From positions 124,001-188,000 of the forward strand of contig DASRBN010000035.1 of NCBI GenBank assembly GCA_035653615.1: a DNA stretch of 64,000 bases, read 5' to 3'. Shown piece by piece: positions 44,163 through 46,470 of this stretch (its first letter is position 1; the number at the start of each line of letters is the position of its first letter). The notes under the pieces are model-generated. The model saw only the letters and a program-made list of their open reading frames with translations. It was not told the DNA's origin and ran no database searches. Position numbers and translations under genes: made by a program. Source of the DNA: Ktedonobacteraceae bacterium (GTDB lineage Bacteria > Chloroflexota > Ktedonobacteria > Ktedonobacterales > Ktedonobacteraceae).

Positions 44163-45347
44163 CTACGCGACGTTCTCGATGACGGCTGCGATGCCCTGTC
44201 CGCCGCCGATACAAAGCGAGGCGGCGCCATATTTGAGGTGGTGGCGGCGCAGTTCGTACATCAGGGTCAGTACCAGGCGCGCGCCGCTGGCTGCCAGGGG
44301 ATGACCGATGGAGATCGCGCCGCCGTTGACATTGGTCTTGTCGCGATCCAGGCCAAGTTCTTTTTCGACGGCCAGGTATTGCGGGGAGAATGCCTCGTTG
44401 ACCTCGACACGGTCCAGGTCGGAAAGGCTCAAATCGGCACGTTTAAGTGCCTGGCGAATGGCCGGAGCTGGTCCAATGCCCATGATTTCGGGTGGAACGC
44501 CGACAACACCCCAGGAGATCAGGCGAGCGATGGGCTTCAGGTTATGTTGCTGCACTGCGTCGCCCGTTGCTAGAATCACGGCTGCTCCCGCGTCGTTGAT
44601 GCCGCTGGCATTGCCGGGGGTGACGACGCCACCCTGGCGGAATCGGGATGGCAGTTTCGCCAGGGCCTCCATGGAGGTGTCACGAATGCCCTCGTCCTGC
44701 GTGATCTGAACGGGATTGCCCTTGCGGTCCTTGACTGTGACGGACACAATCTCTTCGGCCAGCAAGCCGGCCTGCTGGGCGCGACGAGCGGCAGTCTGAC
44801 TACGTAAGGCATACGCGTCCACCTGTTCTCGCGTCAGGCCATATTTTTCGGCGAGATTTTCGGCTGTGATTGCCATACCGCAGCCGACATAGCTGTCTAT
44901 GAGAGCCTCCCACAGGCTATCCTCCAGTTGCGGTGCCTGCCCAAGTTTGAAACCGTTGCGCGCTCCACGAATAACGTGGGGGGATTGTGTCATATTTTCT
45001 GCGCCGCCAGCAAGGGCAATCTGGCCCTCGCCCAATTGCAGCATCTGGGCGGCGCTGACGATGGCCTGGAGGCCAGACCCGCACAGGCGATTCACGGTGA
45101 GCGCCGGAGTTTCAATGGGTAATCCGGCTTTCAGCGCGACATGGCGCGCAAAATAGATGGCATCCTTGCTGGTCTGAATGACGTTACCCATTACTACTTG
45201 ATCGATCTGTTGGGGATTTACTCGGCTGCGTTCGATAGCTCCCCTGGCAGCGATGACACCAAGGTCGATAGCACTGACATCGGAAAGGGAGCCTTGCAAT
45301 ACGCCAAATGGAGTTCTGGCTCCATCAATGATATAAATATCCTGCAT
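44163..45347 (-). CDS. Acetyl-CoA C-acetyltransferase (thiolase)
   Basis: A 394-residue type II thiolase that condenses or cleaves acetoacetyl-CoA. The catalytic cysteine is Cys89 in NRLCGSGLQA; NVNGGAISIGHPLAASGARL carries the His, and LCIGGGQG near the C-terminus the second Cys. Start set at 45347 because AAGGAG precedes it; the ATG at 45407 has no ribosome-binding site. Near the 3-hydroxybutyrate dehydrogenase and, across 457 bp, the acetate transporter. It can serve polyhydroxybutyrate or ketone-body type metabolism; no phaB or phaC is in view. Confidence 0.93.
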   Translation of the reverse strand: MQDIYIIDGARTPFGVLQGSLSDVSAIDLGVIAARGAIERSRVNPQQIDQVVMGNVIQTSKDAIYFARHVALKAGLPIETPALTVNRLCGSGLQAIVSAAQMLQLGEGQIALAGGAENMTQSPHVIRGARNGFKLGQAPQLEDSLWEALIDSYVGCGMAITAENLAEKYGLTREQVDAYALRSQTAARRAQQAGLLAEEIVSVTVKDRKGNPVQITQDEGIRDTSMEALAKLPSRFRQGGVVTPGNASGINDAGAAVILATGDAVQQHNLKPIARLISWGVVGVPPEIMGIGPAPAIRQALKRADLSLSDLDRVEVNEAFSPQYLAVEKELGLDRDKTNVNGGAISIGHPLAASGARLVLTLMYELRRHHLKYGAASLCIGGGQGIAAVIENVA

Positions 45348-45448
45348 GATTGATTTCTCCTTGCTGGTGAAACGACTATTTGCCATTAAGTAAAGTGTAA
45401 CATCCAAAAGACTCGAGTCGCAAGCGGCAAAAACCCTGGCAATCCCCG

Positions 45449-45477
45449 TTACAAACGGGCTTTTTGTATGTTATAAT
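45449..45477 (+). promoter_or_regulatory. Promoter of the acetate transporter leader
   Basis: -10 TATAAT (45472-45477) with a 17-bp spacer to TTACAA (45449-45454), a weak -35. The spacer and -35 overlap a CCCGT-TACAA-ACGGG hairpin with CTTTTTG after it (45445-45466), so readthrough and initiation may interfere. Confidence 0.6.
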
Positions 45478-45483
45478 GTCCTA

Positions 45484-45804
45484 TAAGCACAAGCCTCAAG
45501 CGAGTGTAGCATTGATGGTTGTGCAGGCTACATCTATCGAAGGAAGGAGGTAGATAACCGGCATCATTTATACATAGGCCATACTTCACTATTCTCTGTT
45601 AGCGTTGTGTGAAGTTGATCGCCCACCCTGGGCGATTGCAAACCCATCCATAAGGTCTGTGGATGGTTCGTATCCTACCTACTCTTGCAGGCACCGCGGC
45701 CTGCGACAAGCAGATGCAAGAGGTTAAACCTGGTGTTTACCTCACATGCACTAATGAGTGTGTACATGTATTGCTAGTCTTTTAATGAAAGGTGGGAACC
45801 TTTA
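45484..45804 (+). ncRNA. Long structured 5' leader of the acetate transporter (possible cis-regulatory RNA)
   Basis: The ~320 nt between the promoter and the start codon carry several stems: TGTAGC/GCTACA (45505-45510, 45527-45532), ATCGCCC/GGGCGAT (45618-45624, 45630-45636), CCATCCA/TGGATGG (45644-45650, 45660-45666), CTCTTGCA/TGCAAGAG with an inner GCAGGC/GCCTGC (45682-45722), AGGTTAAAC/GTTTACCT (45721-45729, 45735-45742). Long-range pairing GGTAGATA (45549-45556) with TATCCTACC (45671-45679) could enclose the first part. The last hairpin AAAGGT/ACCTTT (45788-45803) holds the ribosome-binding site just before the ATG. An orphan AGGAGG (45545-45550) has no start codon after it. I recognise no known riboswitch class. 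Confidence 0.55.
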
Positions 45805-46470
45805 ATGGCTCAAGCTATTGAACGTACCGAAGTCGCAGCTCCGGCCGTTGCTAACCCTGCTCCTCTTGGCCTTAGCGCCTTCGCACTTACTACTTTTGTC
45901 CTCAGTGCCGCCAATGCACAATTCATTTTCCACGGCGATCCGATTGCTACGGGGAACATTGCTCTCGGCCTGGCGGCTTTCTATGGCGGTCTTGTGCAAC
46001 TTATCGCCGGTATCCAGGAGTTTAGAAATAACAATACCTTTGGCGCGACTGCCTTCTGCTCCTATGGGGGCTTCTGGCTTGCCGTCGCAGTTACGCTCAC
46101 GCCATTATTCGGAGGCAAGAGCCTTGTCGACCTTACTGCTGGTGCGCCGGCATCTGCGGCCGATATCTCTGCTGGAGCTGGTATGTTCTTCCTGGGCTGG
46201 ACCATCTTTACTGGATTGATGTTCCTCGGCACGTTGCGAAGTAACCTTGCTCTTATAGGCGTTTTCTTCCTCCTGTTCCTGACTTTCCTGGCGTTGACGA
46301 TCGGCTGGTTTTCAGGCGTCCCACTTCCAGGAACTGGCGCTTTGACCTGGGTTAATATTGGTGGTTGGCTCGGCATTATCACTGCGCTTATTGCCTGGTA
46401 CACGGCACTTGCCGGCGTGCTTGCTTCCACCAAGTCCGCTTTCCAGTTGCCAGTTTTCCCGATGGGCTAA
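45805..46470 (+). CDS. Acetate/succinate transporter, GPR1/FUN34/YaaH (SatP) family
   Basis: The 221-residue protein has the signature ANPAPLGLSAFALTTFVLS (residues 15-33; NPAPLGL is diagnostic) and six hydrophobic helices, ending in FQLPVFPMG. SatP-type channels take up acetate and other small monocarboxylates. Translation start lies directly after a hairpin that hides the AAAGGTGG ribosome-binding sequence, which suggests translational control by the leader. The downstream neighbour on the other strand is a small membrane protein and an aquaporin. Acetate uptake fits with acetyl-CoA acetyltransferase and bdhA next door. Confidence 0.92.
   Translation: MAQAIERTEVAAPAVANPAPLGLSAFALTTFVLSAANAQFIFHGDPIATGNIALGLAAFYGGLVQLIAGIQEFRNNNTFGATAFCSYGGFWLAVAVTLTPLFGGKSLVDLTAGAPASAADISAGAGMFFLGWTIFTGLMFLGTLRSNLALIGVFFLLFLTFLALTIGWFSGVPLPGTGALTWVNIGGWLGIITALIAWYTALAGVLASTKSAFQLPVFPMG

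What the first reader, a model, noticed from the sequence alone, without database searches (positions are those of the whole stretch)
45484..45804. Long structured leader before a YaaH acetate transporter, with hidden ribosome-binding site
About 320 nt of untranslated leader contains at least five separate stems, a possible long-range helix (45549-45556 with 45671-45679), an orphan AGGAGG not followed by a start codon, and a final hairpin (45788-45803) that hides the ribosome-binding site of the transporter. A 12-codon frame (45515-45553) ends inside the orphan AGGAGG helix. I recognise no known riboswitch. It could be a new cis-regulatory RNA responding to acetate-related metabolites, or a thermosensor.
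Basis: partly seen in the sequence, partly recalled or inferred. Interest (0 to 1): 0.62.

Follow-up and report, generated by a model that had tools for sequence, protein, structure and literature searches.

The report
Structured leader hiding acetate-transporter ribosome site
The mRNA for a bacterial acetate transporter (YaaH/SatP) begins with a long folded leader whose conserved fold covers the transporter's ribosome-binding site and which also carries a second ribosome-binding sequence that starts no protein; the arrangement recurs in this bacterial class and matches no catalogued RNA family.

Summary
The leader is real and, in its family, conserved. A predicted extended -10 promoter puts the 5' end near 45484, about 320 nt before yaaH. 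Rfam gives no match. DNA homologues lie upstream of yaaH in four relatives. A covariance model of the 3' half (45671-45802), run over 47 whole genomes, gave its significant hits only upstream of yaaH, including three further genera. Compensatory changes support four helices: P1, P2, P3 and P5. P1 pairs 45673-45680 (UCCUACCU) with the yaaH Shine-Dalgarno (SD, 45790-45797).

The SD is hidden, but by P1.

The orphan SD (45542-45550) has counterparts in most yaaH leaders of the class (background 7-10% of upstream windows). No conserved start codon follows it, and it complements the 16S rRNA tail.

Most likely: a translational control leader that keeps yaaH off by covering its SD, plus a ribosome-docking element like STAB-SD of cry3A. 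No ligand or trigger is known, a thermosensor looks unlikely, and nothing was tested at the bench. Orphan SDs also precede a few other transporter genes, so that part may be general.

The parts
45448..45477 (+). predicted sigma-70 promoter, GTTACA-18-TATAAT with extended -10 (TG); start of transcription inferred near 45484
   Evidence: extended -10 retained at the same place in most homologous leaders
45515..45553 (+). 12-codon frame MVVQATSIEGRR, not conserved
   Evidence: sequence; absent or different in relatives
45542..45550 (+). orphan Shine-Dalgarno GGAAGGAGG without a start codon
   Evidence: counterparts in most class yaaH leaders; 44-63 nt from the predicted 5' end in 14 of 18 family leaders; 16S tail duplex -19.3 against -14.1 kcal/mol for the yaaH SD
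45616..45637 (+). hairpin UGAUCGCCC/GGGCGAUUG, counterparts in G003, G019, G015
45643..45666 (+). hairpin CCAUCC...GGAUGG, counterparts in G002, G003, G019, G015, G004b
45673..45680 (+). P1 5' strand UCCUACCU, anti-Shine-Dalgarno
45687..45704 (+). P2 hairpin GCAGGC-ACCGCG-GCCUGC
   Evidence: 97% of cells paired, two pairs with two-sided changes; counterparts in 17 family leaders
45705..45718 (+). P3 5' strand GACAAGCAGAUGCA
   Evidence: 94.5% paired, five pairs with two-sided changes
45720..45743 (+). P4 hairpin GAGGU-U-AAAC/GUUU-ACCUC; compatible stems in relatives by eye, not shown by the counts
   Evidence: poorly aligned (32% paired)
45747..45764 (+). P5 hairpin UGCAC/GUGUA
   Evidence: 92.5% paired, C-G/U-A exchange
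45767..45779 (+). P3 3' strand UGUAUUGCUAGUC
45790..45797 (+). yaaH Shine-Dalgarno AGGUGGGA = P1 3' strand
45805..46470 (+). yaaH/satP acetate-succinate transporter gene

Best explanation
A two-module cis-acting leader of yaaH. Module 1, about 55 nt from the predicted 5' end, is an orphan Shine-Dalgarno that binds the 16S rRNA tail but starts no protein; a docked 30S subunit there would protect the mRNA from 5' exonuclease decay (RNase J is encoded) and/or keep a ribosome close by. Module 2, the last ~130 nt, folds into a branched domain (P2, then P3 enclosing P4 and P5) closed by P1, which pairs an anti-SD (UCCUACCU) with the yaaH SD, so translation is low until P1 opens through a ligand, a protein or a passing ribosome. 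Shown computationally: sequence conservation, compensatory changes, yaaH-linked occurrence, predicted SD occlusion, orphan-SD conservation. Inferred: the 5' end, translational repression, the function of the orphan SD. Unknown: the trigger.
For: DNA homologues upstream of yaaH in four family genomes, 72-75% identity, E to 6.5e-17. Covariance model from five leaders over 47 whole genomes: non-training hits G008 2.3e-6, G004 2.7e-5 and 0.006, G001 5e-4, all upstream of yaaH; five genomes of genus g13 score E~1, each at the same place; the few other hits have E>1. Pair counts, 13 leaders: 88.7% paired against 37-47% slid; 12 pairs with two-sided changes against 4.9 shuffled; P1 93%, P2 97%, P3 94.5%, P5 92.5%. 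yaaH SD more hidden than in most shuffled leaders in 17 of 18 family leaders and 14 of 15 from three other families, against 57% of 30 genes in the window. Orphan SD matching 8 or more of 10 positions in 17 of 18 family leaders and 14 of 18 others, against 7-10% background. RNase J, 631 bits over a cut-off of 400. STAB-SD precedent: PMC4113751 and PMC3997798.
Against: P1 is nearly invariant among close relatives, and within the family the native anti-SD/SD pairing is not better than pairing swapped between species (P=0.30). The pair counts come from an alignment fitted to the model. The model finds no significant hit outside the family, so homology with the leaders of the other families is not shown. 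In those families the orphan SD is often far from the predicted 5' end (up to ~250 nt), which does not suit simple 5' protection. No expression data.
Confidence: 0.6

Rival explanations
1. Metabolite riboswitch: the P2-P5 domain binds an acetate-linked metabolite (acetyl-CoA, acetyl phosphate, a carboxylate), which stabilises or releases P1.
For: Branched fold with near-invariant stretches among five leaders (GACAAGCAGAUGCA, UGUAUUGCUAGUC) closed by an SD-occluding helix; found only with yaaH; a divergent acetyl-CoA acetyltransferase gene sits beside yaaH in four genera.
Against: The strict stretches lie mostly in P3 helix strands and fade in more distant leaders; only one gene family is controlled.
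Confidence: 0.2
2. Ribosome standby site, as in tisB mRNA: the orphan SD holds a 30S subunit that enters the hidden yaaH site when P1 breathes.
For: An upstream dock plus a sequestered RBS is the tisB layout (PMC7708055); the orphan is 179-298 nt upstream in the family and about 100-280 nt in others.
Against: Other orphan-SD leaders (xanthine/uracil permease, amino-acid permease, sugar-binding proteins) show no extra SD hiding (ranks 0.22-0.98), so orphan SD and hidden RBS are separable.
Confidence: 0.3
3. RNA thermosensor that melts P1.
For: SD paired in a helix containing a G-U pair.
Against: Predicted P1 probability 0.98 at 20 C, 0.91 at 50 C and 0.80 at 60 C, without a sharp transition.
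Confidence: 0.05
4. Leader-peptide control: the upstream AGGAGG or the 12-codon frame is translated and its ribosome sets the fold.
For: A 12-codon frame ends in the orphan SD in this genome.
Against: The frame is not conserved; no start codon at consistent spacing follows the orphan SD, and a stop comes early in several relatives.
Confidence: 0.05
5. Anti-anti-SD switch: the orphan SD pairs with UCCUACCU and frees yaaH.
For: GGAGGUAG can pair with CUACC in this leader (-12.4 kcal/mol).
Against: z about 0 against shuffles, native pairing not better than swapped (P=0.97), equilibrium probability 0.00.
Confidence: 0.07

Closest known systems
STAB-SD of Bacillus thuringiensis cry3A mRNA (Agaisse and Lereclus 1996; reviewed in PMC4113751)
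   Same: An SD-like sequence in the 5' leader without translation start, complementary to the 16S tail; RNase J is encoded in this genome.
   Different: The cry3A element lies close to the 5' end of the stable transcript; here it is about 55 nt inside the predicted end and is followed by a folded, SD-hiding domain; stability not measured.
tisB ribosome standby site (E. coli, PMC7708055)
   Same: Ribosome dock far upstream of a sequestered RBS.
   Different: tisB uses a single-stranded site and a 5' pseudoknot; here it is a canonical SD.
Translational riboswitches and protein-binding leaders that sequester the SD
   Same: Branched domain closed by an anti-SD/SD helix.
   Different: No Rfam match, no ligand or protein known, one gene family.
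dnaK motif near satP in Enterobacteriaceae (PMC11109978)
   Same: Structured motif in an intergenic region beside a satP gene.
   Different: Other phylum, sits between dnaK and satP over a potential promoter region, proposed as possible ssDNA; no relation shown.

Membership tests
Any Rfam 15 family (4227 models) | score at or above gathering cut-off | tested here: not met
   0 hits in the window; permissive scan of the leader gives one spurious hit, 9.5 bits against 100 required
Structured cis-regulatory leader | compensatory base changes in orthologous leaders | tested here: met
   with the caveat that the alignment was fitted to the model
Structured cis-regulatory leader | consistent linkage to one downstream function | tested here: met
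   all significant whole-genome hits upstream of yaaH
Riboswitch | direct ligand binding that changes expression | not testable with these tools
   needs probing or reporter assays
STAB-SD | 16S-complementary SD-like sequence in the leader without initiation | tested here: met
   no conserved start codon; 16S tail read at L140; duplex -19.3 kcal/mol; absence of initiation judged from sequence only
STAB-SD | close to the 5' end of the stable transcript | tested here: inconclusive
   44-63 nt from the predicted start in 14 of 18 family leaders, much more in several leaders of other families; start not mapped
STAB-SD | stabilises the mRNA against RNase J | not testable with these tools
   RNase J gene present
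Ribosome standby site | RBS too structured for direct binding | tested here: inconclusive
   predicted cost of opening the SD 7.9 kcal/mol; not measured
RNA thermometer | SD helix melts within the growth range | tested here: not met
   predicted P1 probability 0.80 at 60 C; prediction only, growth range unknown
T-box leader | conserved T-box sequence and specifier stem | tested here: not met
   GGCACCGCGG lies in and around the P2 loop here and changes in relatives; no Rfam hit
Leader-peptide attenuator | conserved short ORF | tested here: not met

The most novel reading that the evidence does not exclude
A new class of translational riboswitch, confined to one Ktedonobacteria-like family, that senses an acetate-linked metabolite and controls its transporter, working together with an orphan SD that recruits or parks 30S subunits.
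Probability: 0.15. Interest if true: 0.8.

Novelty: new variant of a known kind. Interest (0 to 1): 0.5.

Why it matters
It would be a structured leader absent from Rfam, in a little-studied bacterial class, controlling an acetate/succinate transporter whose RNA-level regulation is undescribed in the papers searched here. A conserved non-initiating SD across a whole class would widen the STAB-SD idea beyond the Gram-positive examples discussed in the reviews read, and offers a direct test of whether 30S docking stabilises mRNA in this phylum.

Tried and rejected
Orphan SD as anti-anti-SD. Within-family swap test for P1: uninformative because the SD is nearly invariant. Joint alignment of the f4 leaders with RNAalifold: no useful consensus. 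Whole-leader copies elsewhere in the genome: none. Scan of the GTDB-based contig collection: only Actinobacteria-type YaaH genes, whose upstream regions score 5-7 of 10 for the orphan SD. Other classes of the phylum: 4 of 20 YaaH upstream regions score 8 of 10, no common layout seen.

Full report
What is there. The ORF 45805-46470 is a GPR1/FUN34/YaaH transporter. A promoter-like site with extended -10 ends at 45477, so the transcript should begin near 45484. The 347-nt stretch 45484-45830 folds at -117 kcal/mol, z -3.1 against shuffles. Rfam has no match, and the leader occurs once in its genome.

Conservation. A DNA search of 61 genomes found homologous leaders in four genomes of the same family, each directly upstream of yaaH. 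The alignment keeps the TATAAT box, a purine-rich orphan SD, UCCUACCU and the 3' domain. The yaaH homologues of the class (47 genomes held) were then inspected upstream. In family f1 the orthologous genes carry the layout; divergent paralogues, including both others in this genome, do not. On the YaaH tree most paralogues form a clade, with two leader-bearing rows (one long-branched) beside it. The paralogues therefore act as an internal negative set.

The 3' domain. From five leaders (alignment A4) a covariance model was built with P1 (45673-45680/45790-45797), P2, P3, P4 and P5. Over 47 whole genomes its significant matches lie only upstream of yaaH, including non-training genera g9, g5 (two copies) and g2; genus g13 matches at E~1 at the same place in five genomes, and the remaining hits have E>1. 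On the fitted 13-leader alignment 88.7% of cells pair (37-47% when slid by 1-3 columns), 12 pairs change on both sides (shuffled mean 4.9), and P1, P2, P3 and P5 are each above 92% paired; P4 is not resolved by this alignment. Because the alignment leans towards the model, the independent part of the evidence is the genome-wide hit pattern plus compensatory changes seen by eye in leaders not used for training (G008, G001, G004).

Is the SD hidden? In 18 family leaders the predicted unpaired probability of the yaaH SD ranks below one half of the shuffles in 17 and at or below 0.05 in 8. In 15 leaders of three other families, 14 rank below one half. Among 30 genes of the window, yaaH included, 57% do, mean rank 0.45. 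In f4 a different recurrent element (GACUCAUCUCC-like, noted by eye) faces a different SD (GGAGAGGAGU). Exchanging leaders between f1 and f4 weakens the pairing (centred -0.88 same family, +0.93 across; permutation P=0.002); this is in essence one contrast between two families. Within f1 the exchange test is uninformative (P=0.30).

The orphan SD. GGAAGGAGG 45542-45550 has counterparts matching 8 or more of 10 positions of AGAAAGGAGG in 17 of 18 family leaders and 14 of 18 leaders of the other families, a few of these assignments being ambiguous (for example L020, L048). Windows of the same size upstream of other genes reach this in 7% and tiles of the window in 10%. AGAAAGGAGG is the exact complement of the 16S 3' tail of this genome (L140). 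No start codon follows at consistent spacing. In 14 of 18 family leaders it sits 44-63 nt from the predicted 5' end while its distance to ATG varies from 179 to 298; in the other families the distance to the predicted 5' end varies widely. It is not predicted to be especially accessible.

Wider occurrence. In this genome exact AGAAAGGAGG also precedes, without a start codon, a xanthine/uracil permease (L148, promoter 55 nt before, gene 106 nt after), an MFS transporter and two substrate-binding proteins; in G004 an amino-acid permease has promoter plus orphan SD. Their own RBSs are not specially hidden. This favours a stability role (STAB-SD like) over standby, but the sample is five.

How it most likely works. 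P1 closes over the SD and keeps yaaH translation low until it opens; the orphan SD docks 30S subunits and protects the mRNA. The first part is supported by comparative evidence, the second by analogy to cry3A (PMC4113751, PMC3997798) and by the presence of RNase J. The trigger is unknown. A thermosensor is disfavoured by the predicted stability; a leader peptide is disfavoured by lack of conservation.

Prior descriptions. Full-text searches for yaaH with riboswitch, and for Ktedonobacter with riboswitch, returned no paper describing this element; the one related item is the enterobacterial dnaK motif beside satP. Subscription papers were not searched.

Noticed in passing
G000:C42:136327 (L148), L136, L124, L138; G004 L155: Orphan AGAAAGGAGG about 100-180 nt before transporter genes (xanthine/uracil permease, MFS, substrate-binding proteins, amino-acid permease): possibly a general leader design of these bacteria.
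   Followed up: partly
window 44163-45347 and L024, L026, L027-L033: An acetyl-CoA acetyltransferase (thiolase) gene lies divergently beside yaaH in four genera.
   Followed up: partly
L048, L051-L054, L056, L057: Leaders of family f4 carry their own recurrent anti-SD (GACUCAUCUCC-like) and GC-rich hairpins; may be a separate structured RNA.
   Followed up: partly
window 45785-45805: Mini-frame AUGAAAGGUGGGAACCUUUAA overlaps the yaaH start (UAAUG); in G002 the same AUG is in frame with yaaH.
   Followed up: no
window 45445-45459: Terminator-like stem CCCGTTACAAACGGG followed by CTTTTTG overlaps the promoter -35 region.
   Followed up: no
L101, L103 (G222, G208, family f18): YaaH leaders of another family of the phylum share sequence just upstream of the gene, and L101 has GGAGGGAGGAGGGG at about -227.
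   Followed up: no
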